Part shown: in pieces, positions 26,309 to 45,762 of the stretch
How positions within the stretch are numbered: position 1 is the stretch's first letter
How the letters are laid out: the number at the start of each line of letters is the position of its first letter
Assembly: GCA_003160635.1 (NCBI GenBank)
Contig: PMLV01000077.1
Location: 67,386-131,385 of the forward strand
From: Acidimicrobiaceae bacterium
Lineage (GTDB): Bacteria; Actinomycetota; Acidimicrobiia; Acidimicrobiales; RAAP-2
Reading direction: 5' to 3'
DNA length: 64,000 nt
The notes under the pieces: model-generated
What the model was told of the DNA's origin: nothing
What the model saw: the letters and a program-made list of their open reading frames with translations, nothing else
Databases searched by the model: none
Program-made: the position numbers and the translations under genes

Positions 26309-27913
26309 TTGAGCATCCCCTCGTCGCCGAGACGAGGAGGACGAGTGGCAAGGAGAGCGATCAGAGTGATCGACGTAGTCGAACTTTTCCAGCACTGGCA
26401 TGCGGGGCGCCGGATCGGCGAGCTGAGCTCGTCGCTCGGGATGGACCCCAAGACCGTGCGCAAGTACATCAAGCCGGCGCTCGACGCCGGCCTCGTCCCG
26501 GGCGGGCCGCCGCTGGGTGCCGCGCAGTGGGCCCAGCTCGCCGAGGGCTGGTTTCCAGAAGTGGTGGACCGATCCCGGCGCCAGAGCACATGGCCCGAGA
26601 TCGCCCCGCACCACGACCGCATCAAGGACTGGATCGGGGTGGTGACCATCGCCACGATCCACCAGCGCCTGCGCGACGACCATGGTCTCGGTGCGTCGGA
26701 GTCCTCGGTGCGTCGCTACATCTGGGCCAACTTCGAAGAGGACGTGGCCCGGGCCGCCGTGCGGGTGCTGCGCGACACGCCGCCGCCGGGCGAGGAAGCA
26801 CAAGTGGACTACGGGTTGCTCGGGCGCTGGTTCGACCCGGTGGCGCAACGCTGGCGCAGGGTGCAGGGCTTCATCATGGTGCTGGCCTTCAGCCGCCTCA
26901 TGTTCTTGCGACCGGTGCTCTCGATGGACGAGCAGTCGTGGGTGGAGAGCCACGTGCTCGCCTTCTCCTTCTTCGGCGGCGCCGTGGCGCGGGTGGTGCC
27001 CGACAACCTCAAGACCGGAGTGATCAAGGCCGACCTCTATGACCCGCTCATCAACAAGTCCTTCGGTGAGTTCGCCGCTCATTACGACACGTTGGTGGAC
27101 CCGGCGCGTTTGCGAAAGCCCCGGGACAAGGCTCGGGTCGAACGCCCGGTGCCCTATTGCCGCGACTCGTTCTTCGCCGGACGAGAGAGCGAGTTCAAGG
27201 ACCTCGCGCACATGCAGGCCGAGGCGCTGCGGTGGTGCGGGCGCGTGGCCAACCAGCGCCAGCACCGCGGCATCGAGCGCGTCGCCCCCCAGGAGCTCTT
27301 CGAGGCCGAGGAGAAGGCGTTCCTCCTCCCGCTGCCGCGCGCACCTTTCGAACTGGCCAAGTGGTCGAGGCCCAAGGTCCCACCCGATATCCATGTCAAG
27401 GTGGGACGGACGCTTTATAGCGTGCCGTGGATCCACATCGGCAAAGTGGTCGACGCCCGCCAGAGTGCGCGCACCGTCGAGATCTACCTCGAGGGGACCC
27501 TCGTCGCCACCCATGTGCGCGCCGAGCGCGGCAAGGTGACCAACTACGACCACTACCCGCCCGAGAAGATCGCCTTCATGATGCGCACCCCCGCCTGGTG
27601 CCGCCGGCGAGCGGCTGAACTGGGCGACGCCGTGGCCGAGGTGGTGGCCGCCATCATGGAGGTCAACGCCCTGTATCGCCTGCGCCAAGCCCAGGGCGTG
27701 GTAGCCCTGGTCGACAAGTACGACGCCTCCCGGCTCGACGCCGCGTGCAAAAAGGCCCTCTTGGCCGGGGACCCGTCTTATAAGACGGTCAAGGGCATCT
27801 TGGTCGCCGGCGTCGAGCTCGACGACGAACACGAGGCCCAGGCCCCGCCGGCTGCGCCGGCCCACCTGCACGGCCCCGCGCGCCTCTTCGACATCGAGGA
27901 GGCGGCCCGATGA
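26309..27913 (+). CDS. istA: IS21-family transposase IstA; start may be GTG 26345
   Basis: RRGGRVARRAIRVIDVVELFQHWHAGRRIGELSSSLGMDPKTVRKYI HTH; EAQVDYG and downstream DDE-type integrase core. Confidence 0.92.
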   Translation: MSIPSSPRRGGRVARRAIRVIDVVELFQHWHAGRRIGELSSSLGMDPKTVRKYIKPALDAGLVPGGPPLGAAQWAQLAEGWFPEVVDRSRRQSTWPEIAPHHDRIKDWIGVVTIATIHQRLRDDHGLGASESSVRRYIWANFEEDVARAAVRVLRDTPPPGEEAQVDYGLLGRWFDPVAQRWRRVQGFIMVLAFSRLMFLRPVLSMDEQSWVESHVLAFSFFGGAVARVVPDNLKTGVIKADLYDPLINKSFGEFAAHYDTLVDPARLRKPRDKARVERPVPYCRDSFFAGRESEFKDLAHMQAEALRWCGRVANQRQHRGIERVAPQELFEAEEKAFLLPLPRAPFELAKWSRPKVPPDIHVKVGRTLYSVPWIHIGKVVDARQSARTVEIYLEGTLVATHVRAERGKVTNYDHYPPEKIAFMMRTPAWCRRRAAELGDAVAEVVAAIMEVNALYRLRQAQGVVALVDKYDASRLDAACKKALLAGDPSYKTVKGILVAGVELDDEHEAQAPPAAPAHLHGPARLFDIEEAAR

Positions 27914-28665
27914 AGCCGCACCACTTGGAAGAGACGTTGTCGAAGTTGAAGCTCTTCGGCATGCTCGACACCCTCGAGATCCGACTGGCCCAGGCGAGCG
28001 CCGGCGACCTCGGCCACGTCGAGCTGCTCCAGAGCCTGTGCGAGGACGAGGCCGCTCGGCGTGACGCGGCGGGGATCGAGCGCCGAGTGAAGGCGGCGCG
28101 CTTCGAGCAGACCGCGACGGTCGAGGACTACGACTTCTCGTTCAACCCAAAGATTCCGGCCGCCCAGATCCGTGACCTCGCCACGTTGCGCTTTGTCGAG
28201 GCCGCAGAATCGGTCATCTTGCACGGGCCGGTCGGCGTCGGAAAGTCGATGATCGCCCAGGCGCTCGGACATGCGGCCTGTCGACGCGGGTACACGGTTG
28301 TCTTCACCAAGACCTCTCGGCTGCTGGCCGACTTGGCCGGCGGGCACGCCGACCGCAGCTTCGAACAGCGCCTTGTCCGTTGGAGCCGGCCACAGATCAT
28401 CGTCTTCGATGATTTCGCGATGAGAGACTTCACCTTGGCCCAGGCCGACGACCTCTACGAGCTGGTGACAGCCCGGGTGCAAAAGACCTCGATCTTCACG
28501 GCCAACCGGCAGGCCTCGGACTGGTACACGCTGTTCCCCAACCCCGTCGTCGCCGAGTCGATCCTCGATCGCATCGTGAACTCGGCCCACCACGTGCACA
28601 TGGACGGCAAGTCGTATCGGCCCAACAAGCGGCCGGGACAGACACCCAAGGGAGCGGGCAAGTGA
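27910..28665 (+). CDS. istB: IS21-family helper ATPase IstB
   Basis: ESVILHGPVGVGKSMIAQALGHAACRRGYTVVF, IIVFDDFAMRDF; ATGA overlap with istA. Confidence 0.95.
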   Translation: MKPHHLEETLSKLKLFGMLDTLEIRLAQASAGDLGHVELLQSLCEDEAARRDAAGIERRVKAARFEQTATVEDYDFSFNPKIPAAQIRDLATLRFVEAAESVILHGPVGVGKSMIAQALGHAACRRGYTVVFTKTSRLLADLAGGHADRSFEQRLVRWSRPQIIVFDDFAMRDFTLAQADDLYELVTARVQKTSIFTANRQASDWYTLFPNPVVAESILDRIVNSAHHVHMDGKSYRPNKRPGQTPKGAGK

Positions 28666-29806: not shown

Positions 29807-30781
29807 TCAATTCGGTTTTCTGTGTTCTGCCCAGTGCTTTTCGAGCCACTTCAGATGCCGCTTCGATAGCACTACCTTGAGCTCCGTGCCCTCCAGATCC
29901 TGGTAGTGCGCATAGTCAGCCAGCTCTTCGGAGATAGATATCTCCTTGCTGGCAGGATTAACGGCGATCATGCCCAGGTCAAACATTGTATGCAGATCTC
30001 TACGAATCAGAAGACCTCCGTCATCATGATGGGCTGCGTCTTTTGCATAGCTGTAGAGATGGCACGCCTCAAGGGCCTCGCGTGGAGCCTTACCGGTAAA
30101 AGCACAGACGGAACCGAACTGGTCTAAGAGCTTTTGTCGAAACTGACCCTGTCCAACGCGAACTCGGACGAGGCGGTTTTTGTGGCCACCCTTGATAAGG
30201 CTTTCGGTCTTCACAAGCATATCGATTTCGACGCGATACCCCTTGTCGTTCAGAGCTTTGATGAATGCTGGCCAGACAAGCGGCCGAAAACTATGTTGAT
30301 CGTCCGAGCTCCGACAAAGGGACCTCAGTTGTGGACCCAGAAGAACACCTTTCAGGTCGATCCACCCAGCGGCATAATGTGACTCGTATTGAAGTACTTG
30401 GACTTTCTTCACGAAGGGTTTGTTGAACTCCCAGCCGCACTTGTAACACTTGTACAGGGGCTGCTTGCTAGTTCGTGCCTTGATTCCCGCAAGATTGCAT
30501 TTAGGACACTTCTTGAGCAGCTTCGTAGCTTCTTGGGTAGCTATCGAATCAATCACGGACATCCCAAGGACTGACAGTTTATTCCAAATTACGATCCGGT
30601 GTCCCACATGGACAGAACCATGATTAGGTACCGTGCTATCCCATCTATAGGACGCCTCTGGGACGTCGGAGTATCCGTCATTTCCACCATGTTGGGTGCG
30701 ACCAGAAACCGCCAGAGCCAACCACGAATTCACTCCGGCCACATCTTCCCCGCTCACAGGCGTGTCCCCCCCGTCACTCAA
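29807..30781 (-). CDS. HNH endonuclease with zinc ribbon
   Basis: CPKCNLAGIKARTSKQPLYKCYKCGWEF ribbon; RQKLLDQFGSVCAFTGKAPREALEACHLYSYAKDAAHHDDGGLLIRRDLHTMFDLGMI HNH block. Confidence 0.85.
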   Translation of the reverse strand: MSDGGDTPVSGEDVAGVNSWLALAVSGRTQHGGNDGYSDVPEASYRWDSTVPNHGSVHVGHRIVIWNKLSVLGMSVIDSIATQEATKLLKKCPKCNLAGIKARTSKQPLYKCYKCGWEFNKPFVKKVQVLQYESHYAAGWIDLKGVLLGPQLRSLCRSSDDQHSFRPLVWPAFIKALNDKGYRVEIDMLVKTESLIKGGHKNRLVRVRVGQGQFRQKLLDQFGSVCAFTGKAPREALEACHLYSYAKDAAHHDDGGLLIRRDLHTMFDLGMIAVNPASKEISISEELADYAHYQDLEGTELKVVLSKRHLKWLEKHWAEHRKPN

Positions 30782-31553
30782 ACGAAATGGGTGAACCCGA
30801 GAGCGCGCTGTTCGAGTCCACAGCCAATTGGTTCAATACATCGGCAAATTCGGAATCTGTCATCGCATCGAGTGCTGTGTGGGACTTGATTGCGCGAAGA
30901 CGTCTAGTTATTTCACGAACGAATTCCGAGCGCGCCACCGAGAGGCCAGCGCTCTCCGCCCGCCATACCGTATCCCTGATGGCTCTGGCCGTACGCTGGT
31001 TCCCACCAAGCGACGGACGTTCCATGATTTGTACGAACTCGTCCTCGCCGAGTGGGCGACATCCCTCGGGCGCCACATCTAGGTCACCGCCGAATGCCCA
31101 GGCGCGCCACCACGTCCTCCGCAGGACGTTACGCGGTTTGCCCATCAGACGATGCTCGGCCCGATCTGGGAACCGCCAGGGTCCTATCTCGGGCACCAAG
31201 ATAAGAGTCAAAAACGACCACACTCCTTCTTCTGCTGCGTCGGCAGTCACGATTGCCATCTCACGGAAGAGACGAGTACCGCAGGGTCGATCAAAGCTTT
31301 GGCCACCAAGCTTTGCTATCGGCGTTGGGTAACCCGCTTCTTTGGCGACAGCTCTAATTTCGAGCTGAATGGATTCAAGAGCAGACTCATCGGCCGGATG
31401 GCCACCGGTGGCAGCTGGCGCCGCGTCCGGATGACTCGTCGCTGCGAGCGCCGCAAGCTCGTCCAAGGGAAGCTCAGCACGTTCACGTACAATTCGCCCA
31501 GCGACACCCTCGGCCAGTCTCGGGTAAAGGAGGTTCGGCATAGCTTGCGTCAT
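30774..31553 (-). CDS. Uncharacterised protein of the defence operon (possibly DUF6339-like, from memory)
   Basis: MPNLLYPRLAEGVAGRIVRERAELP...; overlaps both neighbours by a few bp. Confidence 0.6.
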   Translation of the reverse strand: MTQAMPNLLYPRLAEGVAGRIVRERAELPLDELAALAATSHPDAAPAATGGHPADESALESIQLEIRAVAKEAGYPTPIAKLGGQSFDRPCGTRLFREMAIVTADAAEEGVWSFLTLILVPEIGPWRFPDRAEHRLMGKPRNVLRRTWWRAWAFGGDLDVAPEGCRPLGEDEFVQIMERPSLGGNQRTARAIRDTVWRAESAGLSVARSEFVREITRRLRAIKSHTALDAMTDSEFADVLNQLAVDSNSALSGSPISFE

Positions 31554-32440
31554 GGCAGTATGCGGCAGTAGTTCTGGATCGCCGCCTCAACCCTCACAGG
31601 ATCTGTTTGAAGCCACCCGCGGACCGTAATTGGGTCTTCGTGTGGCCATATGGTTGCAAGCAGGTTACGAAGCACGCCTGAAACGCTCTTCGCCTCTGGG
31701 TCAACAGGTGCGTCAACGACGTCACCGTGAGCCAGCCCCATTCCCACCATCTGACGCGTCACATCCCACCGCAGAGTACGCCATAACTGTGCTGTTCCCT
31801 CGTCGGGAGCACTCTCAAGGAGTTTGCCAACTGCGGGGTGACCCGAATTTACATTTAGACGCGCTGCTGCCATGAAAAGGGCATCCACGTCACTCATATC
31901 TATGTCGAGCACCCAAGCCGCCGCCGAATAAAGGGGATATGTCTTGGAGAAGTCGGAGGCTTCAGTCGGAAACTGAGCTCGGACCCCTTCCAATTCGGTG
32001 CGAGTTCTCGACCGCCAAAGAATGCTGCCGGGGTGTGTCGGGGCTAGTTTGCCCAGCGGATCGGCGTGGGAAACGACAAGGTAGGTGTCAAGTGTAAGGC
32101 GCCCCCCAAGCTCACCCCCGGGTAGGTTGAACTGAATTCTAAGATCAAAGGCGTCCTGAGGTGGTATCGCTTCGAACGCCACAGAACGTTCGGTCCGAGT
32201 GTGATCAGAGTGAGCCATCACCAGAACTGATAATCGGCTCGCTTCGCCGAGCTCACATGCTTTCAACACCTCATTTCTATTTACGGAGACCGACGCAGCC
32301 ATCTCCAGAACCGTTTGATAGTCCCAATGAGGCAGTTCGGAAGGCAATGGCGTGTCACCGGCAGGGGTGCGGAATTGCCAACCCCCGTGGATGATCAACT
32401 CCTCGGGTGGGATAAGAAAGGGGACAACCGCGGTCTTCAC
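31550..32440 (-). CDS. Uncharacterised protein of the defence operon
   Basis: ORF with 4-bp overlaps at both ends; no family recognised. Confidence 0.65.
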   Translation of the reverse strand: MKTAVVPFLIPPEELIIHGGWQFRTPAGDTPLPSELPHWDYQTVLEMAASVSVNRNEVLKACELGEASRLSVLVMAHSDHTRTERSVAFEAIPPQDAFDLRIQFNLPGGELGGRLTLDTYLVVSHADPLGKLAPTHPGSILWRSRTRTELEGVRAQFPTEASDFSKTYPLYSAAAWVLDIDMSDVDALFMAAARLNVNSGHPAVGKLLESAPDEGTAQLWRTLRWDVTRQMVGMGLAHGDVVDAPVDPEAKSVSGVLRNLLATIWPHEDPITVRGWLQTDPVRVEAAIQNYCRILP

Positions 32441-34299
32441 GCAGCTGACATCGCTTCCGGATGTATATCCAGCAGTACGGTGGTATCCCGACTTCTCGAA
32501 ACAAAGAGTTCGATCTCAACTGGTTCCTCGCTCATCACGCTGAGTTCTGCGTTTGTGCCGTTGAGCAGCGTCGTTTGATCGAGAAAACGAGCCTCAACGA
32601 GTTGCAGTACAGGGTCAAGATCCATATCGACCGTCGTCCCATCCAATGCCGCACCGCAGGCAATACTCAGATGCGTTCCCGGGGAGCCATCCCTGTGAGT
32701 CACCCGGAACTTCACGCGAGTCATGACCACTCCGTCTTTTACGACAGGACCAGAGTGAACAACTTCAATCCGCGCCTTTGGTTCGCGCAGATTTGGCGTT
32801 CCAGTTCCACGCGGAGGCCGGCCCGAGCCCCGCGCTTCTGTCGTACGAACCAAGCCGGCCAACTCTGCGGCTATGGCCGCCGTACTCGTTGTATCGGTGT
32901 CACGAATCGTGGGACGCGGAGCCCACCTGTTGTCAAGCACGTTTCGGATCTCCCTCAGACCCACATTGACAATCGTCCTGTCACGCCGACTTGGGAGTAA
33001 CTCAGTCCTCCAGGAGTCATGTGTTGGAGGTTCCGCTGCCGCAAAGCTCGCATCATGCTCTGGTCTGCATCGAAACACGCCGGCCCACTCCATGCCTCCT
33101 TCGAGAGGAACCGGCCCGAGCAAATAATCGACGACTAACTCGGGGGTCCTCAGTAGAGCCACATGATGGGCGGGACCGGATATGACTGCCGCCGGTCTTG
33201 GACTGTCCTCCTCGTGGGGGTCATGACCATCGTCTACGATCGCCCGTTCGCGCACTACCAGGGGTACCGTTACAAGGTCTCCAATCGCTGTCTTCGGTTT
33301 CATGCAGCGAATGACGTCGTGCCTCGTACCTGCAGGCTGATTATCGGTGTCGCTTCCGTCAAGCATGGCACGGAATGCTTGAGCAAACCCGTAAAGCGGT
33401 GGACGTTCAGAAGGACTTGGAATCTGTATGCCGTTTCCGTTCCAAGTTACAACGATAGTCATGGGGACCTTTGAACTCCGCTCCATCATCTTGGGCCAGA
33501 GGTACCATGCGGCAGATTCCGCGATGAACGTCATTGCCTGTTCTCCGGTGCGTTCAGCAAAGTCAGGATCAACGACCATGATCGTCGTCCCAGTCTCGCC
33601 CTCTTCGAACGGTGGCATTCCAATTGATGCTGCGATCCGGTCTGCGGCACCTCCGGTCACCGGATGCGGCATACCATCGACCGAGCGACCCCACCAGTGA
33701 CGCCCAGTGCACAGGTAACCGCCCCGCTTAAATTCGTCCCCGATTGCACATGCGATCAGGCGAGACTGAATTTTACCGTTTCTCCTCGACTTGGAATGGA
33801 TCACCACCGAATTCACCTTTGATACGACGAACGCGATCGTCTTCCCAAACCCATAAGTGCCGCCGGTGTGCCTCGCCGTATTCGCCTTTCCAACATTCAG
33901 TACAAAGTCAACCCAGTCATACGTATCTTCTGAGTCGACCTTGTCGGCCTGGACTGGACCGCCCAAACCCTTTGTATTGCGGTCCCATATGTAGAAAGCG
34001 GTCAACGACCCGCGCGCCAGCGCACCATTGAGCCCAGTTCCCACAGCCTTCTCCGCACTGGGAAAGACGAGCTCTCTTAGACTCAGAATCTCATCCGGTT
34101 CTAGATCCCAGCCCTCCACGGAAAACACAACGGATAGATCGTCGCTAAGTCGTGCATCCCAACTGTTCTGTGCCGTTTCGCGTAACAATACCGTGAGGGG
34201 ATCTAGGCGAGGTCGTCCCAACAGCTTGGAGAACCCAGCGGCAGCGAGTCCGCCGCTCCGCGGGTACGCCTCTGGGATCCAATCGGCGGGCTCGATCAC
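32437..34299 (-). CDS. GHKL-fold (Bergerat) ATPase, long form
   Basis: LLRETAQNSWDAR N-box and HTGGTYGFGKTIAFVVSK ATP-lid-like glycine block. Confidence 0.7.
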   Translation of the reverse strand: MIEPADWIPEAYPRSGGLAAAGFSKLLGRPRLDPLTVLLRETAQNSWDARLSDDLSVVFSVEGWDLEPDEILSLRELVFPSAEKAVGTGLNGALARGSLTAFYIWDRNTKGLGGPVQADKVDSEDTYDWVDFVLNVGKANTARHTGGTYGFGKTIAFVVSKVNSVVIHSKSRRNGKIQSRLIACAIGDEFKRGGYLCTGRHWWGRSVDGMPHPVTGGAADRIAASIGMPPFEEGETGTTIMVVDPDFAERTGEQAMTFIAESAAWYLWPKMMERSSKVPMTIVVTWNGNGIQIPSPSERPPLYGFAQAFRAMLDGSDTDNQPAGTRHDVIRCMKPKTAIGDLVTVPLVVRERAIVDDGHDPHEEDSPRPAAVISGPAHHVALLRTPELVVDYLLGPVPLEGGMEWAGVFRCRPEHDASFAAAEPPTHDSWRTELLPSRRDRTIVNVGLREIRNVLDNRWAPRPTIRDTDTTSTAAIAAELAGLVRTTEARGSGRPPRGTGTPNLREPKARIEVVHSGPVVKDGVVMTRVKFRVTHRDGSPGTHLSIACGAALDGTTVDMDLDPVLQLVEARFLDQTTLLNGTNAELSVMSEEPVEIELFVSRSRDTTVLLDIHPEAMSAA

Positions 34300-35288
34300 T
34301 GGCTCATTTCAGCAAGAAGCAAACTGATCTCAACTGGGCTCAAGGGCGTCGGGGGATCGTTGGTGAGGTCTATTGAATAAGACAGGCGCAACGTTCCGGA
34401 AGGCACCTCTCCATGGAGGAATGAAAGAGGCGTGATCCGTGGGAAAGCGGCTCCCTCGACGTCGTAGACCCTATTGTCGGCTATACGGTACATATAGCTC
34501 GAATACCTATCGCGGTTCATTTCGACGTATCCAACTCGGCGAAGTAAGGCTAGAAACCCCGTTCGTTCCACTCCGAGCTCCAAGATCCCATCCACCAAAG
34601 AAGGAATACTCACGCCTGTCGAATCAGCCTCAAACCGATAATGGAAAAGATGAAGTCTGCCGTTGGGGGGTGGCAATAGTTGATCAACGCTGCTGATAGG
34701 TACGAACCGTCCCTCTCTCACCAAAGTGGCCTTAACCTCGATTGCCTCGTCGCCGGACCGAAAATCATGCTGGCTGCCAGAGGGACCTGTCCATACCGAG
34801 AGATTTCGGTCAGGATCTCGCTTTAGGAGCTCTTCGAATACAATCAGTTCAGCCATCAACCCGGTCCGAGCCTGCTCGCTCAGGAGGCCAGCACTCTCGG
34901 CGTCAGAAAATAGCCGCTTCCATCGGTCCAGAACCTCAAGGGTCGCATGAGCCGGCGAGTGTGCCTCAACAACTTCTGGGAGTAGCTCGCTGACAAAGCG
35001 CGCGAACTCCTCGTTGAGATCAGCTTGAATGCAGATCGCACAAAGGTAGGCAGTCTCCTGATAAGTGACCCTAATCAGATGGACGGCCCTGCCAGTTCGG
35101 TCTTCGCCAAAGGCCTCGCCAAGCCGCAATGGGATCAGCAGAAGCCTTCTGCCGAGGTTGTCGACACCGAGCAAGACCATGCCGGCCGAGACTTCAACGC
35201 CGGACTCAACTACGTCCATCCCGGAATCTGGTCCCTCGGCCACGGTCTGCAAGACAGCCCAGATCGCCCGAAGATCGGGGTCAGGCAT
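34296..35288 (-). CDS. PD-(D/E)XK motif protein (PF14390/DUF4420-like)
   Basis: LTGLMAELIVFEELL-like block, QHDFRSGDEAIEVKATL catalytic pattern; next to Z1 gene. Confidence 0.75.
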   Translation of the reverse strand: MPDPDLRAIWAVLQTVAEGPDSGMDVVESGVEVSAGMVLLGVDNLGRRLLLIPLRLGEAFGEDRTGRAVHLIRVTYQETAYLCAICIQADLNEEFARFVSELLPEVVEAHSPAHATLEVLDRWKRLFSDAESAGLLSEQARTGLMAELIVFEELLKRDPDRNLSVWTGPSGSQHDFRSGDEAIEVKATLVREGRFVPISSVDQLLPPPNGRLHLFHYRFEADSTGVSIPSLVDGILELGVERTGFLALLRRVGYVEMNRDRYSSYMYRIADNRVYDVEGAAFPRITPLSFLHGEVPSGTLRLSYSIDLTNDPPTPLSPVEISLLLAEMSQ

Positions 35289-37944
35289 CGCTCAGATCCA
35301 CATCGTCTCGATCGCCTTCGTCGTCGACATATACATCTTCGGGTTCTGCTTCTTCGGTGGGTTCGGCACGTGGCATGTCAACCTGGATCAGATTCTTCGG
35401 CCTTGATTCGGGTGCGGCACGTGGGAATGAGAAGGCAGCACCCATGAGATGATCTATAGCATCGAGTGGAATCCGATAGCCCTCCTTGTGGGGCTTCGGT
35501 TCGGAGTCCTTATCAATTGGATAGAGCAGAATTAACCCGCGTCTGCTCTCCGTCCTTGCGTCCAAAAGCTGGTTCTCGTCCATGCTGGTGGCCGCTGCGG
35601 AATTAATCAGATCCGCTACACGGTCAGGTTTCGACATCAGCGTTCCGATGTTCGCCGTGGTTGCGTTACTCGATCGCTCCAGTTTCGAACGCGTCAACAG
35701 GTTGACTTGGCCACAGCCAAGATCGATCTGTTTTGCGGGTGGTCGACGAGTGATGACTGCGAGATTCCAATATTCAAGCCATTCGTACCTCTGCTGTTCG
35801 GATATATATCTCTCCAAGAGGCCCGAGCGAAGCTCGGTGTCGGGATGGAAGGTGAAATCTCGGACAAATGTGAGCACCGATTCGGCGGCGATATCGAAAA
35901 AGATCAGCCGGCTCTCTTGCCGATCTTGCCGCGAGCCGGAGTCGAGCGCTGTTGAAATCAGACGCTTGGCGGCTCCTCGATTGGAGGCAATTTCGGCAGG
36001 ATCCCGATGATGAAAGTATGTGGTCTGAGGGCGCTGACCGCTGTACGACGCCTCACCCGGTACTGCAAAGTGCATTTTGTTTCTGGCTGTTACCTGCATC
36101 CGCGGATGGAGCCTGAGTCGGACGGGAAGTTGTAGCGGCGTTGCATCCTCGGCTTGAATTCTCCAGACTTCCAGTCGGAGATCTCGTTCAACGTCGGCGA
36201 GGAACCTGAAATCCTCAGCAAGATCCGCAGAGGTCCAGATCCGAGGTAGATCTTCATACCCAGGCCGATACCCGAACCATCGACCCATCTGCAGCAGGGA
36301 GTCGTAGGTTTGGGCGGTCCGTAGGAAAAAAGAGGATACTAGGCCTTCGAGAGTGAGTCCTCTTGAGAGGGTGTTACCGCCAACAGCGATCACAGTGGCT
36401 GGTTCCTTGGTGTATATCAGACGATCCGTCGATCGGCTGTTGTCGGCAACCACCTTGACATCGGACAGAACTTCAGGGATCGCATCCTTCAGGTCAATAA
36501 ATGGAATGGCGCTACGACCAAATCGACTGGGCGGTTCCCGCTCCTGCTCGACGGTCCATTGATCCTTCCAGTCAGCTTCCGTGGTGCCAGACAACCAGTC
36601 ATTCCGGAGTGCCTTAATGAAGTCTCGGATCACATCGAGTTGCTGCAGCTGAGGATCGATTCTCATTGTCGTATGGATGAGCATGCTTGAGTGTTTCCGC
36701 TCTCCCGACCTCACTCGGCGGGCGGCGGTTGCCAGCAAGAACCAGCGGATTGCGTCGCCCAGCGCCGGCGTGACGACGGGCGAAAACGTCCCTTTAGTTG
36801 GAACTCTGTAGTGATGGACCTCGTCATGGGGAACGATCCGAATCATGTCGTGAGGCTGGGAGTCGGTGTCCTCATCATCCTCAACCACGGCCTTTCCGAA
36901 GAGTTCCTCGGAGCCAAAATAGGGTGGAGGCTTCGGCAGCGAATAAATGAAATTGCGCGGGTAGAGGTCCTCCGCGTCAGCAGGATTTATGAGAACATTC
37001 GCAAAAGGAGTGGCCGTGTAACCAATGTACGCGACTCTGGGTAACTTCAAAAGATCCACGATCAATCGGTTAATGTTGGTCCTGTCCAGCTCCGGATCCT
37101 TTGCTGCGTTCGGGCTAGCTTGGTCTGACTCGTCGTCAATGATCAACACTGGACATGCGTCTAGCCCGCGCTCTGCGTCCGCAAGGCGAAGCCAATCACG
37201 AAGGCGGGTCAGTCGTGAGACATTCTTCTTCACCACTGCCAGCAGACGGAGTTCGGTGCCCGCAACCAGAGCGAGAGCCTTCAGGGGACGGCCAAAATCC
37301 TCATCCTCTCCGGTCAATTGTGACCATTTTGTCTTGTGGAGTTCGTAGAGCTGTTCGTCAAGTCTCAGTTGTGTCTGCCGCCGGAGTGCATTGTGAACGC
37401 CTGACAAGACGATGAAAAGCCGATATCCAGCGTCCGCAGCCTTGGCGATCGTCGCCGTGAAATTGGCGGTCTTTCCCGACTGTACATATCCGAGAACCAG
37501 TCCTCTAGTTGAAATGGTGGGACTGTGCGGGTCTGCGAGAAGGCTGACGACATTCGTCGAGGCCTCGTCCAACGACTCGACCGCGTCCTTCCAATCGGGA
37601 TCAGATTCGAGTGATTTTTTGAGTCCAGGCCAAAAGAGGTCGTCAGCACTCGGTCCTGTGTACCAAGGTACGAATTCCTCGAGGTCGACCAACGCGCCGT
37701 GGGTTGCAATATGCCGCCGCTGTTCGGCTATCCGCAAGTGCTCTGCAACCATGCGGTCGACCAGATCGTCGTTCCCCAGCATTACCTTCAGCTTGGCCGT
37801 CGCGTTCGGGAGATCGTTGCCCTGCCGGAGCAGCAGCTCGAGTCCCTCGAGTACGCCTTGCTCCTGTGCCGTGAGTGCCATTGGTCCCTCAGCTTCTGCC
37901 GTGGTGTCTGGTGTGGCAATGTAGTCGCTATCGATTCGAATCAC
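35281..37944 (-). CDS. Z1-domain protein (SF2-like ATPase)
   Basis: GLVLGYVQSGKTANFTATIAKAADAGYRLFIVLSGVHNALRRQTQLRLDEQL, VLIIDDESDQAS, VGGNTLSRGLTLEGL, LLQMGRWFGYRPGYEDLPRI. Confidence 0.9.
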   Translation of the reverse strand: MIRIDSDYIATPDTTAEAEGPMALTAQEQGVLEGLELLLRQGNDLPNATAKLKVMLGNDDLVDRMVAEHLRIAEQRRHIATHGALVDLEEFVPWYTGPSADDLFWPGLKKSLESDPDWKDAVESLDEASTNVVSLLADPHSPTISTRGLVLGYVQSGKTANFTATIAKAADAGYRLFIVLSGVHNALRRQTQLRLDEQLYELHKTKWSQLTGEDEDFGRPLKALALVAGTELRLLAVVKKNVSRLTRLRDWLRLADAERGLDACPVLIIDDESDQASPNAAKDPELDRTNINRLIVDLLKLPRVAYIGYTATPFANVLINPADAEDLYPRNFIYSLPKPPPYFGSEELFGKAVVEDDEDTDSQPHDMIRIVPHDEVHHYRVPTKGTFSPVVTPALGDAIRWFLLATAARRVRSGERKHSSMLIHTTMRIDPQLQQLDVIRDFIKALRNDWLSGTTEADWKDQWTVEQEREPPSRFGRSAIPFIDLKDAIPEVLSDVKVVADNSRSTDRLIYTKEPATVIAVGGNTLSRGLTLEGLVSSFFLRTAQTYDSLLQMGRWFGYRPGYEDLPRIWTSADLAEDFRFLADVERDLRLEVWRIQAEDATPLQLPVRLRLHPRMQVTARNKMHFAVPGEASYSGQRPQTTYFHHRDPAEIASNRGAAKRLISTALDSGSRQDRQESRLIFFDIAAESVLTFVRDFTFHPDTELRSGLLERYISEQQRYEWLEYWNLAVITRRPPAKQIDLGCGQVNLLTRSKLERSSNATTANIGTLMSKPDRVADLINSAAATSMDENQLLDARTESRRGLILLYPIDKDSEPKPHKEGYRIPLDAIDHLMGAAFSFPRAAPESRPKNLIQVDMPRAEPTEEAEPEDVYVDDEGDRDDVDLSDA

Positions 37945-38022: not shown

Positions 38023-38463
38023 TTGGCTATGGGGAAGCAGAAGAGTGGTCCTCGGCTGCGACCCCCAACGCCTCAGGTCTCCCAGCAGATGGCCAGGATG
38101 CCCACGGTGGGATCTGGGCCCGAGATGGCCATCCGAAGGGAGCTGCACTCGAGGGGACTCCGGTTCCGAGTCGCCCCTTGTCATCTGCCAGGCCGTCCGG
38201 ACCTCGCCTTCACGCGTGCACGTCTCGCAGTGTTCGTTGATGGCTGCTTCTGGCATGCCTGCCCATTGCACTGCTCCGTACCGAAATCAAACCGGGAATG
38301 GTGGATCGCAAAGTTCACCATGACTCGGGAAAGAGACGAGCGAAAGGATGCCGGTTTGGCATCGCTAGGGTGGTCAGCAATCCATATATGGGAGCACGAT
38401 CCAGTCCAAACTTCCTGTGATTGGATCGAGGAGGAGTGGCGAAGAAGGCTTGCCGAGAGATGA
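38023..38463 (+). CDS. vsr: Very short patch repair (Vsr) endonuclease
   Basis: LHSRGLRFRVAPCHLPGRPDLAFTRARLAVFVDGCFWHACPLHCSVPKSNREWW. Confidence 0.95.
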   Translation: MAMGKQKSGPRLRPPTPQVSQQMARMPTVGSGPEMAIRRELHSRGLRFRVAPCHLPGRPDLAFTRARLAVFVDGCFWHACPLHCSVPKSNREWWIAKFTMTRERDERKDAGLASLGWSAIHIWEHDPVQTSCDWIEEEWRRRLAER

Positions 38464-38466
38464 TGC

Positions 38467-39819
38467 GTGCGAATGGATGCGCGACGTGGCATCTTGGTGG
38501 CGAACCTAGATCGGGGAAATGAGGTGCCCAAAACGAGCAGTGCCATGGACGTAACGCCCTCTGCGAGCCGTTTGACGAATTCGCTACGTGACATTGGTTA
38601 CGACTTTGCCTCGGCGGTCGCAGATCTGGTTGATAACAGTATTTCCGCAGGATCACGGCAGATTGACATCGAACTTGTATATGAGGGCGAGAGTTCCTAC
38701 ATCCTAATTGCTGACGATGGCTGGGGAATGGGCGATGATGATCTCACCGAAGCGCTGAGGTTCGGTTCTCGTCGCGACTATCTGAACGATGAGCTAGGCA
38801 GGTACGGACTAGGTCTGAAGACCGCGTCACTGTCCCAATGCCGAAGGGTGACCGTAATGTCGAGGAGGACTCCGATTCAACGGAGGATATCGGCTCGCAC
38901 CTTGGATCTGGATCATATTATGGATACGGATCGCTGGGAACTGGTGGAGGTTCCGGAGGACACGTGGGCGTTCCGGGCGCTGGAATGGCTCGATTCATCC
39001 CCTGGCACCGTCGTGTGTTGGGAGAAACTCGATCGCGTTCTCCCCAAGGGACGTTCAGTTGGGGGAGGGCGGCGGCGAATCGAATCCTTATCAAATCGTC
39101 TTTCAGATCATCTGGGCATGATTTTCCACCGTTTTCTTGAGGGTTCTGCGCTGGATTGCCACCGCCTCGCCATTACTGTTAATGGACAGAAGGTACGGCC
39201 GTGGAACCCATTTGCACCTAAGGAGGAAGCTCGTATCGAGTTACCTCGTCGGCAGTTCGAAATCGTCGCAGGTGATGAAGTTGGTTTCGTATCCTTCACT
39301 CCCATCGTGCTGCCCGCTCGTAATCTATTTTCCGGAATTAACGAGTTTGAACGGATGAGCGGTCCTGCCAAATGGAACCGTCAGCAGGGGATATACGTTT
39401 ATCGCGCGGATCGTCTCGTTCAAAGCGGCGGATGGTGCGGGCTGCGAGCAATCGACGAACACACAAAGCTAGCTCGAGCGGCCATCGATTTTATGCCCGA
39501 GCTGGATGAGCTCTTTCGCATCAATGTGGCAAAGATGCGGGTTTCACTCCCGGTCGAAGTACGACCACTGATTGAACCTCACGTGACAGATCTATGTCAC
39601 CGAGCACAAGAGATGTACCGTCGCGACCTGCGAGAGGGTGTTAACCAAGAACCCCTCGGCACTGTTCGAGATGAGGTGACATCCTCTATTGACGCACAGG
39701 AGATTGGTGCGGCGATCCTGTCCGCGTCACTCGCAACAAAGACCACGGCCCAGTTGCAATCGATCGTTGACCACTTACGGCGGACTAACCCAAACGTAGT
39801 CAAACGGCTAGGTTGGTGA
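38467..39819 (+). CDS. GHKL ATPase, MORC/MutL/HSP90-like
   Basis: DFASAVADLVDNSISAGSRQIDIEL, ILIADDGWGMGDDDLTEALRFGSRR, GRYGLGLKTASLSQCRRVTV. Confidence 0.88.
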   Translation: MRMDARRGILVANLDRGNEVPKTSSAMDVTPSASRLTNSLRDIGYDFASAVADLVDNSISAGSRQIDIELVYEGESSYILIADDGWGMGDDDLTEALRFGSRRDYLNDELGRYGLGLKTASLSQCRRVTVMSRRTPIQRRISARTLDLDHIMDTDRWELVEVPEDTWAFRALEWLDSSPGTVVCWEKLDRVLPKGRSVGGGRRRIESLSNRLSDHLGMIFHRFLEGSALDCHRLAITVNGQKVRPWNPFAPKEEARIELPRRQFEIVAGDEVGFVSFTPIVLPARNLFSGINEFERMSGPAKWNRQQGIYVYRADRLVQSGGWCGLRAIDEHTKLARAAIDFMPELDELFRINVAKMRVSLPVEVRPLIEPHVTDLCHRAQEMYRRDLREGVNQEPLGTVRDEVTSSIDAQEIGAAILSASLATKTTAQLQSIVDHLRRTNPNVVKRLGW

Positions 39820-41785
39820 TCTCAAGAACCTCTTGGTAGCAGTTTTCAGCTGCGAACTTACATCCATCCAGGAGGGGACAGTGTCCGCAGTCTGGCGACC
39901 GACCCGCCGTGCATGTCGATGCCGCCAGTTCCATCAGTGCCAAGTGGGCATCTTGTGCACGGTCCTCGCCTCCGATCAATCGTGCAACAGCAAGACGTCC
40001 ATCGCTGTAACGGTTTTTATGCTCAACATTTTCGCCAAGAAATCGGGCGGCAACTCGCAGAACGCCATTGATAACTAACACAGGCTCATCACGATCTTCC
40101 GAATAGCTTGGGCAGACAAGCACAGCTAAATCCGCCACCGTCGAATTCACACCAGGAGCGGCAGCCAACTCTGGGGCTTCTGCATTCCTACCAATCGCAG
40201 CTGGGTGCGCGACAAACCATTTGGCCGCCGACTTGACTAGCTCTAATCGGTCAGAGCGTCCCCTGATCTTGGCATACAGCTCGAGTGCCTTCAGATTCGA
40301 GGGCTCAAGCGAGTCAGCCGGCGTCACAAGTTGACGGGTAGCGGCCCACGCTTCCTGAACGTGGTCGCGAGCTAACCGCGACCACATGGTCTCAGCTTGG
40401 ATTACTTGCCAGCGTGATTCAGCTTTGAGCCATGGAGTCGTAAGTCTCTTTCGACGACGAAACCAGGTGGCGAGAGTCTTTGATATATCACGCGTAGACC
40501 AAGGTTCAGCGTGTGAGTAGTGCAGCGAGTCGAGCACAGCTCGCCCAAGGTGATTTGCCAACATGGGGGGAACGGCGTTTCCTATCTGGCGAAAAGCAGC
40601 GGAAGGGGGTCCCGCAAAGCGGACATGGTCTGGAAAGGTCTGTATGCGTGCCGCCTCCCGAACGGTGATGGTTCGATCCTGCTCGGGATGGATGAATCCG
40701 TACCCGTCCTTCGCAATGTGAGCTGTAATCGTTCGACTTAGCCCGTTCCAGTCAAGGCGCTTGTACTTATCGTCGAAAATATCGGATCGATACCTCTTCA
40801 GGTGTTCATCAATGTCCGCATATCGCGTCGTCGAATCCATCTGCGCAAATGCGAGTGCATCATCCTCTCGGACTGGCCGCGTTATGTGGTCATATAGCCG
40901 ATGCGTAAGACGACCAGTAAGGCCCTTCCGCATTTCGCGCTGGAACTCCGTTTGTGGCACCAATGGATAGTTCGCCCAGCCTGATGCGACAGGATCCGAA
41001 GGATCGTCCCCGTTATCAGGCCGCCAACCCCCTCCCACTTCGGGCAAATCACCGATGGCGTTTCGAAGGTTGATCTCGGTGGCGGCCGGCACTGGCCAAT
41101 CAAACCGGACTCCATGCGCTAGTCCGATGAGAATTAGGCGGCTCCGAGTCTGTGGAACACCGTATTCCCAGGCGGGAACAACCCGTTCCTCAACTGAGTA
41201 CCCCATCAGCTCGAGTTCATCGACCATTGAGCGCAAAATCCACATATCTCTGTCCAACGCCATGTCAGGCACATTTTCCATGAGAACGGCTGTGGGTCTA
41301 GCTATCGAAACGATCCAAAGGAAAGCCTGCCATAGATCCTTTCGCATGTCGTGTTCAGGTCTAACGCCTTGGCGAACAAGATTCCGAAGACCGGAACGCC
41401 CGACGCGCGAAAACGCTTGGCAAGGTGGCCCACCAGCGATAAGGGTTACGCCTAATGTGCGAATGAAGTTGGCGACTTCTTCGACAACGGCGTCATTCCC
41501 GAGATCCCAGTTCGCGCTGAGGCCGGGGTGATAGGCGCGGTGGGTTTCGAGAGCGAACTCGTCGTTATCAACACCGAGGATTACATCGAAACCAGCCTCC
41601 GCGAGGCCTAAGCTCAAACCGCCGGCGCCACAGAACAGATCGACCGCCAACGGGCGCTTCAGCCGCGCCAAGAGATCGACGAGTTCGTCTTTGTTCGAGA
41701 CGGCTAGAGGATGTGGTTTCAACTTGACGTACGGACCACGCACCATCTTGACGGCGTACGGGTCCCTTACTTTGATTGTCGCCAC
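39800..41785 (-). CDS. DNA cytosine-5 methyltransferase with C-terminal HhH-GPD/Fe-S-like region
   Basis: AVDLFCGAGGLSLGLAEAGFDVILGVDND, GGPPCQAFSRVGR, MENVPDM; C-terminal LAAAPGVNSTVADLAVLV and CTAGRSPDCGHCPLLDGC (C-x7-C-x2-C-x5-C). Confidence 0.92.
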   Translation of the reverse strand: MATIKVRDPYAVKMVRGPYVKLKPHPLAVSNKDELVDLLARLKRPLAVDLFCGAGGLSLGLAEAGFDVILGVDNDEFALETHRAYHPGLSANWDLGNDAVVEEVANFIRTLGVTLIAGGPPCQAFSRVGRSGLRNLVRQGVRPEHDMRKDLWQAFLWIVSIARPTAVLMENVPDMALDRDMWILRSMVDELELMGYSVEERVVPAWEYGVPQTRSRLILIGLAHGVRFDWPVPAATEINLRNAIGDLPEVGGGWRPDNGDDPSDPVASGWANYPLVPQTEFQREMRKGLTGRLTHRLYDHITRPVREDDALAFAQMDSTTRYADIDEHLKRYRSDIFDDKYKRLDWNGLSRTITAHIAKDGYGFIHPEQDRTITVREAARIQTFPDHVRFAGPPSAAFRQIGNAVPPMLANHLGRAVLDSLHYSHAEPWSTRDISKTLATWFRRRKRLTTPWLKAESRWQVIQAETMWSRLARDHVQEAWAATRQLVTPADSLEPSNLKALELYAKIRGRSDRLELVKSAAKWFVAHPAAIGRNAEAPELAAAPGVNSTVADLAVLVCPSYSEDRDEPVLVINGVLRVAARFLGENVEHKNRYSDGRLAVARLIGGEDRAQDAHLALMELAASTCTAGRSPDCGHCPLLDGCKFAAENCYQEVLEITNLAV

Positions 41786-43030: not shown

Positions 43031-43173
43031 TGGAACGGTTCTTCGGGATCGTGCTGACCATGATGGTGGTGCTGATGCTGCTCGGATTCGTCCTGGCGCA
43101 TCTGGCCATCGCCATCTTCTTGTTGCTGGCCGCCGGTCTCATCGGGCGTCAGCTGCGCCGGCACGGTGCCTGA
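43030..43173 (+). CDS. Small membrane protein
   Basis: ATGGAACGGTTC... MERFFGIVLTMMVVLMLLGFVLAHLAIAIFLLLAAGLIGRQLRRHGA; ATGA-like overlap with the previous gene. Confidence 0.6.
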   Translation: MERFFGIVLTMMVVLMLLGFVLAHLAIAIFLLLAAGLIGRQLRRHGA

Positions 43174-44464
43174 GCGCCGCATCCGGACCCTCGGCTCCTA
43201 CTCCCGGATGGCGTTGGCTGTCCGGGGGTGGGGGTTCGAGGTGATCCTGACCATGTCCATCCTGGTGCTCTGGCACGTGGGGACCTTCATCGACGGAGAC
43301 GGGATGGGCGTGCTCTTCGTCGGTGCGGCCGGCATTGCGCTCTGGAGGATTCCCGGTCTCGCCACCCGCCTGGCCAAGAAGTTACGCGACCAATCCTGTC
43401 GGCGTTGGTTCTGCGACGTCCTCATCAGCTGCGGGGTGATCAGCCGGCACGGCCAGATCCCCAAGGTCGAAGCGTTCGAGAAGACTCCGGCCGGCGAGCG
43501 GGTCCGCTTGCGCATACCCGCCGGGTTCTCGAGCGAAGAAATCGAAGCAGTCGGCCCGTCTCTGGCCGCCACCATCGGGGCCCGCGAGGTCAGGGTGCTC
43601 CGTGATCCGGGCAACGCCGCCCTGGCCCAGTTCTCCATCATCTGGCGCGACGCGCTTTCGGCACCTGCACCCCCGTGGCCCGTCCCGACGGGGTCGTTGT
43701 GGGAGCCCATCTCACTCGGCATCGACGAAGACGGCAACCCGGTCCGCATCGGCCTGCCGGAGAGGAACCTGTTGCTGGGTGGCGAGCCCGGTGCGGGCAA
43801 GTCCGCTGCCCTCTCCCTTCTGATCGCAGCCGCCGCGCTCGATCCCTCCGTCCACCTCACACTGCTCGACGGCAAGCAGGTCGAGCTCGCCCCGTGGGCC
43901 GGCTCGGCTGAGCACTTCGTCGGCCCCGACATGGAAGGGGCGATCGGGGTCCTCAAAGGACTGTGCACCGAGATGGACCGGCGCTACGCCACCTTGTTGG
44001 CCGCCGGCCTGCGCAAGATCAAGCCGGGGGGTGAGTTCGGACTCCATGTGGTCGCCATCGACGAGTTGGCCTTCTACATGCGCGGTGGCAAGCGGGACGA
44101 GCGCAACGAGCTGACCGAGACGCTGCGGGACCTGATCTCTCGGGGACGGGCCGCCGGCATCATCGTCATCGCCGCCACCCAGAAGCCGAGCAGCGAGATC
44201 ATCCCCACCTTCGTGCGGGACCTCTTCTCCTTCCGCATGGCGTTGCGCTGCACCACGCCCGAGGCTTCCGACACCGTGCTCGGACAGGGCTGGGCCTCCC
44301 AGGGCTACTCGGCCTCCACCTTGGACCCGACCGCCCGAGGAGTCGGATTCCTGCTGGCCGAAGGTGCCGTGCCGGTCAAGATCCGCACGCACTATCTCGA
44401 TGACGCCACCATTGCCGCCCTCACCAACCGGGCCGAGCGAGCCCGGGGTGGTGGCAGCCAATGA
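43166..44464 (+). CDS. FtsK/SpoIIIE-like DNA translocase (TraSA-type transfer protein)
   Basis: NLLLGGEPGAGKSAALSLLIAAAALDPSVHLTLLDGKQVEL, IIVIAATQKPSSEIIPTFVRDLFSFRMALR. Confidence 0.9.
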   Translation: MPERRIRTLGSYSRMALAVRGWGFEVILTMSILVLWHVGTFIDGDGMGVLFVGAAGIALWRIPGLATRLAKKLRDQSCRRWFCDVLISCGVISRHGQIPKVEAFEKTPAGERVRLRIPAGFSSEEIEAVGPSLAATIGAREVRVLRDPGNAALAQFSIIWRDALSAPAPPWPVPTGSLWEPISLGIDEDGNPVRIGLPERNLLLGGEPGAGKSAALSLLIAAAALDPSVHLTLLDGKQVELAPWAGSAEHFVGPDMEGAIGVLKGLCTEMDRRYATLLAAGLRKIKPGGEFGLHVVAIDELAFYMRGGKRDERNELTETLRDLISRGRAAGIIVIAATQKPSSEIIPTFVRDLFSFRMALRCTTPEASDTVLGQGWASQGYSASTLDPTARGVGFLLAEGAVPVKIRTHYLDDATIAALTNRAERARGGGSQ

Positions 44465-45762
44465 AGTCGGCCGCCGAGTGGCGCGAGATCCTGATCGAGG
44501 TCAATCAGGCCGGCGGCTGTGCCCATCCCATCCGGCTGCAGGGCAACCGCCTCGAGCGGGTCAACGGCGAGTTGGTCGACACCGGCATCGTCGTCCCCTG
44601 CAAGGACCGTCGGGCCGCCGTCTGCCCGTCATGCTCCCGTCTGTATCAAGCCGACGCCTGGCAACTGGTGGCGGCCGGGATCCGGGGCGGCAAGGGGGTC
44701 AGTCCCGACGTCATCGACCATCCCCAGCTCTTCGTCACCCTCACCGCCCCGTCCTTCGGTCCCGTCCACAGTCGGTCCCGATCGGGGACGGTCGGCCGAC
44801 CGTGCCGGCCACGGCGTGGCGCTCCGTCGTGTCCACACGGAGTGTCCATGGCCTGCAACGAGCGACACCCCGACGGCGACCCTGCCCTCGGTGAACCGCT
44901 CTGCGCCGACTGTTTCGACTACCGGGGCGTCGTGCTGTGGAACGCCCACGTCCCGGCCTTGTGGGAACGGACCTCTTCGGAGCTCTACCGGGCCGTGGCC
45001 AAGGCCGGACACCTGAGCACCAAAGACGTGCGCTCGATGGTCCGGCTCTCCTACATGAAGGTGGTCGAGTTCCAACGCCGCGGATTGGTCCACCTCCACG
45101 TGGTGATCCGGGCCGACGGCCGGGACGGTCCTTCCGAGCAAGCCCCAACCTGGCTCGGCCTCGAGTTGCTCATCGCGGCCGTCAACGACGCCGTGGGCCG
45201 AGCCACCGTGGCCGTGCCCGCAGTCGGCGGCACTCCTCTTTCCCGGGCGTCGTGGGGTGCCGAGCGCGACGTGCGGGTACTGGTCCCGAGCCAGTCCGGC
45301 GACAGCACGGCCATCGCCGCCTACGTGGCCAAGTACGCCACCAAGACGGCCGACGGGACCCCATGGCTGGCCCATCCGATCCGCTCGAGGGCGCAACTGG
45401 AACGACTCGTGCTCCGGCCGCACATTGTCCGCCTGGTGCGTGAAGCCTGGACGCTCGGTCAGCACAAGGAACTGCACTCGCTTCGCCTCCAGGCCCATGC
45501 CCACACGTTGGGCTACACCGGCCAGTTCTCGTCGAAGAGCTTGCGTTTCTCCACCACCTTCGGGGCGCTCCGCCAGGCCCGCGTACTCCACGTCAAAGGC
45601 GTCCGGGACGACGCTCTCGACTTCGACGGAGAGTGGCGCTACGCCGGTCGGGGCTACGTCCATCCCGAGTCGAATCAGGTGGCCGCAACGCTCCTCGAGG
45701 CCACCGCAGGGGGCCTGCAGGAGTTCCACACGACTTCCACAAACAGTTCCACAACGCCATGA
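44461..45762 (+). CDS. RepSA-like replication initiator
   Basis: VVPCKDRRAAVCPSCSRLYQADAWQLV, HPQLFVTLTAPSFGPVHSR, VHLHVVIRADG; overlaps ftsK-like gene. Confidence 0.85.
   Translation: MKSAAEWREILIEVNQAGGCAHPIRLQGNRLERVNGELVDTGIVVPCKDRRAAVCPSCSRLYQADAWQLVAAGIRGGKGVSPDVIDHPQLFVTLTAPSFGPVHSRSRSGTVGRPCRPRRGAPSCPHGVSMACNERHPDGDPALGEPLCADCFDYRGVVLWNAHVPALWERTSSELYRAVAKAGHLSTKDVRSMVRLSYMKVVEFQRRGLVHLHVVIRADGRDGPSEQAPTWLGLELLIAAVNDAVGRATVAVPAVGGTPLSRASWGAERDVRVLVPSQSGDSTAIAAYVAKYATKTADGTPWLAHPIRSRAQLERLVLRPHIVRLVREAWTLGQHKELHSLRLQAHAHTLGYTGQFSSKSLRFSTTFGALRQARVLHVKGVRDDALDFDGEWRYAGRGYVHPESNQVAATLLEATAGGLQEFHTTSTNSSTTP

What the first reader, a model, noticed from the sequence alone, without database searches (positions are those of the whole stretch)
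39800..41785. C5 methyltransferase fused to an EndoIII/MutY-like HhH + Fe-S region with apparently lost catalytic Asp
After the methylase domain, the C-terminus has LAAAPGVNSTVADLAVLV (helix-hairpin-helix-like LPGVGxxTA), VLVINGVLRVAARFLG (aligned with VLDGNVxRVLxRLFG) and CTAGRSPDCGHCPLLDGC (Fe-S cluster pattern, C-x7-C-x2-C-x5-C rather than C-x6-C-x2-C-x5-C). The Asp of the glycosylase motif aligns to Ile and the EndoIII Lys is absent. It may be a dead glycosylase used to read DNA, or an altered enzyme. A mismatch-scanning module on a methylase beside vsr is attractive.
Basis: partly seen in the sequence, partly recalled or inferred. Interest (0 to 1): 0.7.

Follow-up and report, generated by a model that had tools for sequence, protein, structure and literature searches.

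The report
Methyltransferase carrying a retired repair enzyme
In many bacterial anti-virus systems the enzyme that marks the cell's own DNA carries, at its tail, a DNA-repair enzyme that has kept its shape and iron-sulfur site but lost the residues that do the chemistry, so it has probably been reused as a non-cutting part of the marking enzyme.

Summary
Window ORF 39800-41785(-), 661 aa, is a C5-cytosine methyltransferase (MTase) with a C-terminal MutY/EndoIII-type (HhH-GPD) domain. AlphaFold2 models it confidently (domain pLDDT 93; whole protein pTM 0.91), and Foldseek matches MutY, the Mig thymine-DNA glycosylase 1kea and EndoIII. In 80 aligned fused homologues none has Asp or Glu at the catalytic-Asp column (MutY and Mig-like: always Asp), while 78-79 of 80 keep each [4Fe-4S]-motif cysteine. 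The domain is under purifying selection (dN/dS 0.04-0.27). So this is a conserved, apparently catalytically retired glycosylase domain, not decay. Neighbours are a MORC/MutL-type ATPase, Vsr, Z1 and PD-(D/E)XK proteins: a known putative defence system. The domain follows the MTase rather than one partner: it is kept where no Vsr was found, and in two DISARM loci. One locus (L098) has both the dead fused domain and a separate Asp-intact glycosylase. Most likely it is a fixed, non-excising accessory domain of the protective MTase, with T:G repair left to Vsr or a stand-alone glycosylase. DNA reading is possible but not shown: the DNA-binding hairpin is eroded and the domain is on average slightly acidic.

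The parts
39800..41785 (-). C5-cytosine methyltransferase fused to a C-terminal MutY/Mig-type HhH-GPD domain (661 aa)
40526..41647 (-). MTase domain (residues 47-420): PPCQ C122, ENV 170-172, QxRxR 212-216 intact
   Evidence: PF00145 E 2.7e-50; invariant in 61 aligned sequences
39842..40498 (-). Pseudo-glycosylase (HhH-GPD) domain, residues 430-648
   Evidence: TIGR01084 E 7.6e-8; Foldseek MutY/Mig/EndoIII; profile hit to PDB MutY E 1e-20
40124..40168 (-). Eroded helix-hairpin-helix LAAAPGVNSTVADLA (residues 540-554); EndoIII Lys120 position is T549
   Evidence: column counts
40070..40072 (-). Codon of I572, the catalytic-Asp (MutY D138) position
   Evidence: 0 of 80 fused homologues have D/E in this column; 15 of 15 Mig-like/MutY have D
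40055..40057 (-). Codon of R577 (MUTYH Arg241 equivalent by alignment, Fe-S-contacting Arg), kept
   Evidence: 79 of 80; role of Arg241 in PMC12000561
39971..40015 (-). Family-specific motif NRYSDGRLAVARLIG (residues 591-605)
   Evidence: R597 in 76/80, D595 in 63/80; not conserved in MutY/Mig-like
39860..39913 (-). [4Fe-4S] motif C625-x7-C633-x2-C636-x5-C642
   Evidence: each Cys present in 78-79 of 80 homologues; x6 in nearly all others
38467..39819 (+). MORC/MutL-type GHKL ATPase (MzaB-like), convergent with the MTase
   Evidence: NF041932 MzaB E 1e-72, below its cut-off; GHKL/MORC-type gene within 10 kb in 77 of 80 loci
38023..38463 (+). Vsr T:G mismatch endonuclease
   Evidence: TIGR00632 above cut-off; within 10 kb in 60 of 80 loci
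35281..37944 (-). Z1-domain protein (MzaC-like)
   Evidence: PF10593 E 8.8e-62; NF041933
34296..35288 (-). PD-(D/E)XK nuclease-fold protein, DUF4420 (MzaD-like)
   Evidence: PF14390 E 1.6e-48
32437..34299 (-). Second GHKL-like protein (PADLOC PDC-M33A-like)
   Evidence: recurs in 36 of 80 loci
31550..32440 (-). Uncharacterised 296-aa protein (U296)
   Evidence: recurs in 34 of 80 loci
30774..31553 (-). DUF6339 protein
   Evidence: PF19866 at cut-off; recurs in 33 of 80 loci
29807..30781 (-). HNH endonuclease-like protein (optional member)
   Evidence: PF13391; in 9 of 80 loci

Best explanation
The gene is the protective C5-cytosine methyltransferase of a MORC/Z1-type defence (restriction-like) locus. 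Its C-terminal 220 residues descend from a MutY/Mig-type DNA glycosylase that has lost base-excision chemistry but kept the fold, the [4Fe-4S] motif and the Arg that contacts the cluster in MutY. I infer that it now works as a rigidly docked, non-excising accessory domain of the methyltransferase. It would help the enzyme engage or hold its DNA target, or stabilise or regulate the enzyme, whatever restriction machinery it is paired with. Repair of T:G mismatches from deaminated 5mC is left to a separate enzyme: Vsr here, a stand-alone Asp-intact glycosylase in some relatives. Shown by computation: fold, loss of catalytic residues, cysteine-motif retention, purifying selection, partner swapping. 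Inferred: inactivity as an enzyme, cluster occupancy, docking, and the exact role.
For: Fold. Catalytic columns: 0/80 D or E at the Asp position, no Lys or Tyr among the residues listed at the Lys120/Tyr position, the Asn140 position now G/A in 72/80, while the R143/R147 equivalents and the Fe-S Cys are kept in 77-79/80. Purifying selection: dN/dS 0.04-0.27 in the domain in 22 independent pairs, 0.04-0.16 in the MTase part (some dS values are near saturation). Docking: full-length pTM 0.91 suggests a defined domain arrangement. Intrinsic to the MTase: kept beside MORC+Z1, DISARM (DrmD/A/B/C, L078 and L085) and two-ATPase HATPase_c_3 proteins. Repair done elsewhere: L098 has the fused dead domain followed by a separate Asp-intact glycosylase; L114 and L034 have unfused MTase plus Asp-intact glycosylase; no Vsr was detected in these three. 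Two IMG/VR members also lack the Asp.
Against: Loss of the Asp alone does not prove death: Sis-HhH-GPD has Ser there and still excises alkylated bases using a Glu (PMC11754123). The MutY Glu37 equivalent (E465) is kept in 52/80. No biochemistry exists. The docking claim rests on pTM; no PAE or coordinates were available. The specific role (DNA hold, regulation, stability) is not distinguished. L113 has an Asp one column away from the catalytic position (DGQGVLRV).
Confidence: 0.6

Rival explanations
1. Dead reader: the domain binds T:G, 5mC:G or the unmodified target without excision and recruits or gates Vsr/MORC at that site.
For: HhH-GPD ancestry; Vsr within 10 kb in 60/80 and a GHKL/MORC-type ATPase in 77/80; MUTYH variants in the Fe-S-to-Asp network bind DNA tightly while inactive (PMC12000561); a Mig-like Arg is kept at the MutY Gln42 position in 58/80.
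Against: Kept where no Vsr is found (20/80) and in DISARM loci; hairpin second Gly present in only 9/80; median domain charge -2.6 against about +4.
Confidence: 0.2
2. Protein docking platform: the domain is mainly a protein-interaction module that ties the methyltransferase to the GHKL/MORC ATPase.
For: GHKL/MORC-type ATPase within 10 kb in 77/80 loci, starting within 300 nt of the MTase 3' end in 59 and convergent in 55 of these; slightly acidic domain with a new conserved motif NxxSDGRLAVAR.
Against: The two DISARM loci have no MORC hit; the ATPases beside L105-L107, L110 and L112-L114 are of a different type. A fixed partner surface would be expected to go with one partner family.
Confidence: 0.2
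3. Altered enzyme: the domain still excises some base with a relocated catalytic residue (for example E465 or D595).
For: Sis-HhH-GPD precedent without Asp; E465 kept in 52/80, D595 in 63/80.
Against: No Glu among the residues listed at the Lys120 position, where I place the Sis catalytic Glu (one Asp there); E465 is not universal; the Asn of the MUTYH cluster-to-Asp bridge is replaced; L098 keeps a separate active-looking glycosylase next door.
Confidence: 0.1
4. Vestige: an inactive leftover being lost.
For: Eroded catalytic and hairpin residues; the L112 tail lacks the cysteines.
Against: dN/dS 0.04-0.27; Fe-S cysteines kept in 78-79/80; W441 in 80/80, R577 in 79/80.
Confidence: 0.05

Closest known systems
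MutY / MUTYH adenine glycosylase, N-terminal HhH-GPD + [4Fe-4S] domain
   Same: Fold (TM 0.60-0.69 by query length), Fe-S motif, cluster-contacting Arg, Glu37 position in most members
   Different: No catalytic Asp, no network Asn, no Lys/Tyr, degenerate hairpin, no C-terminal 8-oxoG domain; fused to an MTase
Mig-type thymine-DNA glycosylase (1kea)
   Same: Fold; association with C5 methyltransferase loci (the pairing of Mig with a methyltransferase on an archaeal plasmid is from general knowledge)
   Different: Mig-type enzymes are stand-alone and keep the Asp; this domain is fused and has none
MORC / Z1 / Vsr / cytosine-methylase operons (Iyer 2008, PMC2292703)
   Same: Same kind of gene content: MORC ATPase, SFII helicase, RE-fold nuclease, Vsr, cytosine methylase
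   Different: That paper's main text has no mention of HhH, glycosylase or Fe-S
Miller 2022 putative defence system Type I (PMC9523054)
   Same: Z1 + PD-(D/E)XK + cytosine MTase + three further genes, associated with DNA repair endonucleases
   Different: The paper's three further genes were not compared with ours here; the section describing the system does not mention the MTase tail
DISARM DrmMII methyltransferase
   Same: MTase domain matches DrmMII models (275.7 bits); the same fusion occurs in two DISARM loci
   Different: DrmMII models are 422-491 positions long and match only up to about residue 424; no DrmA/B/C among the window proteins tested
Sis-HhH-GPD of Saccharolobus (PMC11754123)
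   Same: HhH-GPD protein without the catalytic Asp, Fe-S cysteines kept
   Different: Active through a Glu that this family lacks; stand-alone

Membership tests
HhH-GPD superfamily (fold) | All-alpha EndoIII/MutY fold | tested here: met
   AF2 domain pLDDT 93.3; Foldseek MutY E 3.5e-6, 1kea TMt 0.71, EndoIII 2abk TMt 0.71
HhH-GPD superfamily (enzyme) | Catalytic Asp after the hairpin | tested here: not met
   I572; 0/80 D or E in the family
HhH-GPD superfamily (enzyme) | Gly-Val-Gly hairpin | tested here: not met
   Window APGVNST; second Gly in 9/80
EndoIII (bifunctional lyase) | Lys120 | tested here: not met
   T549; no Lys among the residues listed for the family
MutY / Fe-S glycosylases | Four-Cys [4Fe-4S] motif | tested here: met
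   Cys in 78-79/80; spacing x7 in the window, x6 in nearly all others. Cluster occupancy itself is not testable here
MutY (full) | C-terminal NUDIX-like 8-oxoG recognition domain | tested here: not met
   Protein ends at residue 661, 19 residues after the Fe-S motif; TIGR01084 matched only to position 213 of 277
C5-cytosine MTase | PCQ, ENV and QxRxR motifs | tested here: met
   C122, E170-N171-V172, Q212/R214/R216 invariant
Mza system (Gao 2020) | MzaB, MzaC, MzaD above curated cut-offs; MzaA and MzaE present | tested here: not met
   B, C, D hits below cut-offs (245/850, 366.6/1500, 71.1/420 bits); no MzaA/E hit in the nine proteins tested
Miller 2022 Type I system | Z1 + PD-(D/E)XK + cytosine MTase + three genes | tested here: inconclusive
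   Three core genes present and three further recurrent genes; identity of the paper's three genes not checked
DISARM | DrmA, DrmB, DrmC next to the MTase | tested here: not met
   None among the nine window proteins tested; met in L078 and L085

The most novel reading that the evidence does not exclude
A conserved pseudo-glycosylase with an intact Fe-S site acts as a sensor or gate of DNA state inside a self-marking methyltransferase (for example reading deaminated or hemimethylated target sites, or redox state through the cluster), coupling methylation status to the restriction machinery in several unrelated defence systems.
Probability: 0.15. Interest if true: 0.8.

Novelty: new variant of a known kind. 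Interest (0 to 1): 0.6.

Why it matters
The methyltransferase of a widespread defence locus carries a conserved, apparently catalytically retired DNA glycosylase with its Fe-S site intact. I found no mention of it in the papers I read on these systems, and the literature searches turned up none. It gives a natural separation-of-function case for the long-debated role of the [4Fe-4S] cluster in MutY/EndoIII: here the cluster site and its Arg are kept while the catalytic end of the network is gone. It also makes testable how defence methyltransferases gain accessory domains and swap restriction partners (MORC/Z1, DISARM).

Tried and rejected
Pfam HhH-GPD on the protein: no hit; MutY and family profiles were needed. 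First tree used a mis-built window sequence (several proteins concatenated); redone, where the fused domains form one clade (UFboot 100) apart from Mig-like ones (95). The tree has no EndoIII outgroup, so it does not say whether the parent was MutY or Mig; the Mig-like profile (52.5 bits) and MutY profile (32.2 bits) are not calibrated alike. I dropped 'Tyr means thymine glycosylase': actinobacterial MutY proteins also have Tyr there. The window charge printed is an artefact of the same file error; corrected value -0.5. Foldseek of the full model lists only methyltransferases among the rows shown. Literature searches for an MTase fused to an HhH-GPD domain found nothing relevant; most subscription papers are not in the library. 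Phage records gave no full-length match. Surface mapping was not possible because model coordinates are not exported.

Full report
What is there. Window 39800-41785(-) encodes 661 aa. Residues 47-420 are a C5-cytosine methyltransferase with intact PCQ, ENV and QxRxR motifs (PF00145 E 2.7e-50; invariant across 61 aligned sequences). Residues about 430-648 are a MutY/EndoIII-type domain. Pfam misses it, but TIGR01084 MutY matches 435-649 at 7.6e-8, PDB MutY and the Mig enzyme 1kea match at 8e-6 and 8.7e-5, and a profile of the family finds PDB MutY at 1e-20 and EndoIII at 7e-13. AlphaFold2 gives pLDDT 91.4 and pTM 0.91 for the whole protein and pLDDT 93.3 for the domain alone. Foldseek returns MutY (E 3.5e-6), 1kea and EndoIII.

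It is a family. A genome scan gave 80 loci, mostly Actinobacteria, with a few from Spirochaetales, Cyanobacteria, Anaerolineales and other MAGs. Nearly all are single proteins of about 630-690 aa with the same tail. L114 is the exception, an unfused MTase followed by a separate glycosylase gene. Two IMG/VR contigs and a Synechococcus plasmid carry the fusion too.

Catalytic state. I aligned 80 fused domains with 9 stand-alone glycosylases (from L034, L098, L114-L120) and 6 actinobacterial MutY. The Asp column is D in 15/15 of the enzymes and never D or E in the fused set (T 31, N 16, G 13, S 9, A 5; Ile in the window). The Lys120/Tyr column is A, S, T, V or G in nearly all. The Asn of the MUTYH cluster-to-Asp bridge is G or A in 72/80. 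In contrast, the Arg equivalent to MUTYH Arg241, which bridges the Fe-S cluster towards the active site (PMC12000561), is kept in 79/80, and the four cysteines in 78-79/80. The hairpin second Gly survives in 9/80. A new motif, N-x-x-[ST]-D-G-R, appears (R597 in 76/80). L113 has an Asp one column away from the catalytic position.

Is it decaying? No. In 22 independent pairs dN/dS in the tail is 0.04-0.27, against 0.04-0.16 in the MTase part. The tail evolves somewhat faster but under clear purifying selection. Some dS values exceed 1, so single ratios are rough.

Caution on 'dead'. Sis-HhH-GPD has Ser in place of the Asp yet excises bases with a Glu (PMC11754123). By spacing I place that Glu at the Lys120 column, where this family has no Glu among the residues listed and one Asp. 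The MutY Glu37 equivalent is kept in 52/80. So canonical chemistry is very unlikely; an unusual activity is not excluded.

Neighbourhood. Within 10 kb of the 80 MTases: GHKL/MORC-type ATPase 77, Z1 61, Vsr 60, PD-(D/E)XK 59, GHKL M33A-like 36, U296 34, DUF6339 33, HNH 9. Some contigs are short, so these are lower bounds. The ATPase gene starts within 300 nt of the MTase end in 59 loci, convergent in 55. This matches the MORC/Vsr/cytosine-methylase operons of Iyer et al. 2008 (PMC2292703) and resembles the Type I system of Miller et al. 2022 (PMC9523054). Window proteins fall below the curated Mza cut-offs, so I do not call it Mza.

Partner swapping. In L078 and L085 the same fused MTase follows DrmD, DrmA, DrmB and DrmC, that is, a DISARM locus. 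In L105 it is followed by a HATPase_c_3 + HATPase_c protein, like the HEF_HK genes of PMC8011034. L098 (Stenomitos) has the fused inactive domain and, right after it, a separate glycosylase with an intact Asp (LIDTNTVR); L114 and Thermus L034 have unfused MTase plus Asp-intact glycosylase. No Vsr was detected in these three. The Thermus protein is closest to 1kea. Of six plasmid hits to the L098 enzyme that I opened, five have a cytosine MTase gene within about 550 nt (L116-L120) and L115 has none in view. So Asp-intact glycosylases recur near C5 MTases as separate genes, while the fused copy lacks the Asp throughout this sample.

Interpretation. The tail goes with the MTase, not with Vsr or one restriction partner. 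It is confidently placed in the model, keeps fold and Fe-S motif, and has lost excision residues and most hairpin features; its median net charge is -2.6 against about +4 for Mig-like and MutY domains (window -0.5). The simplest reading is a retired glycosylase turned accessory domain of the methyltransferase. Whether it grips DNA, senses DNA state or docks the ATPase is open.

Novelty. The locus type, the MTase and the HhH-GPD fold are known. I found no report of this conserved pseudo-glycosylase tail, within the limits of an open-licence library.

Noticed in passing
L078:3-11059 and L085:3-11041: DISARM loci (DrmD, DrmA, DrmB, DrmC) whose cytosine methyltransferase carries the pseudo-glycosylase tail.
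   Followed up: yes
L098:9143-11872: Fused MTase with inactive glycosylase domain directly followed by a separate Asp-intact MutY/Mig-like glycosylase, with no Vsr detected: a natural side-by-side pair.
   Followed up: yes
L059, L060, L062, L064, L066: Loci with two different fused MTases; in four of them the second copy ends its Fe-S motif with C-x6-C instead of C-x5-C.
   Followed up: partly
window 43166-45762: FtsK/SpoIIIE-type protein and pSAM2-like RepSA initiator next to the defence genes: an actinomycete integrative element may border the locus.
   Followed up: partly
window 26309-28665: IS21-type transposase and IstB ATPase on the other side of the locus.
   Followed up: partly
window genome G000: The fused gene is the only PF00145 match found in the window's assembly, so it may be the sole source of 5mC there.
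   Followed up: partly
L117, L118 (haloarchaeal plasmids): Asp-intact glycosylase gene near a cytosine MTase and an ATP-binding protein of about 660-680 aa: a recurrent gene set.
   Followed up: no
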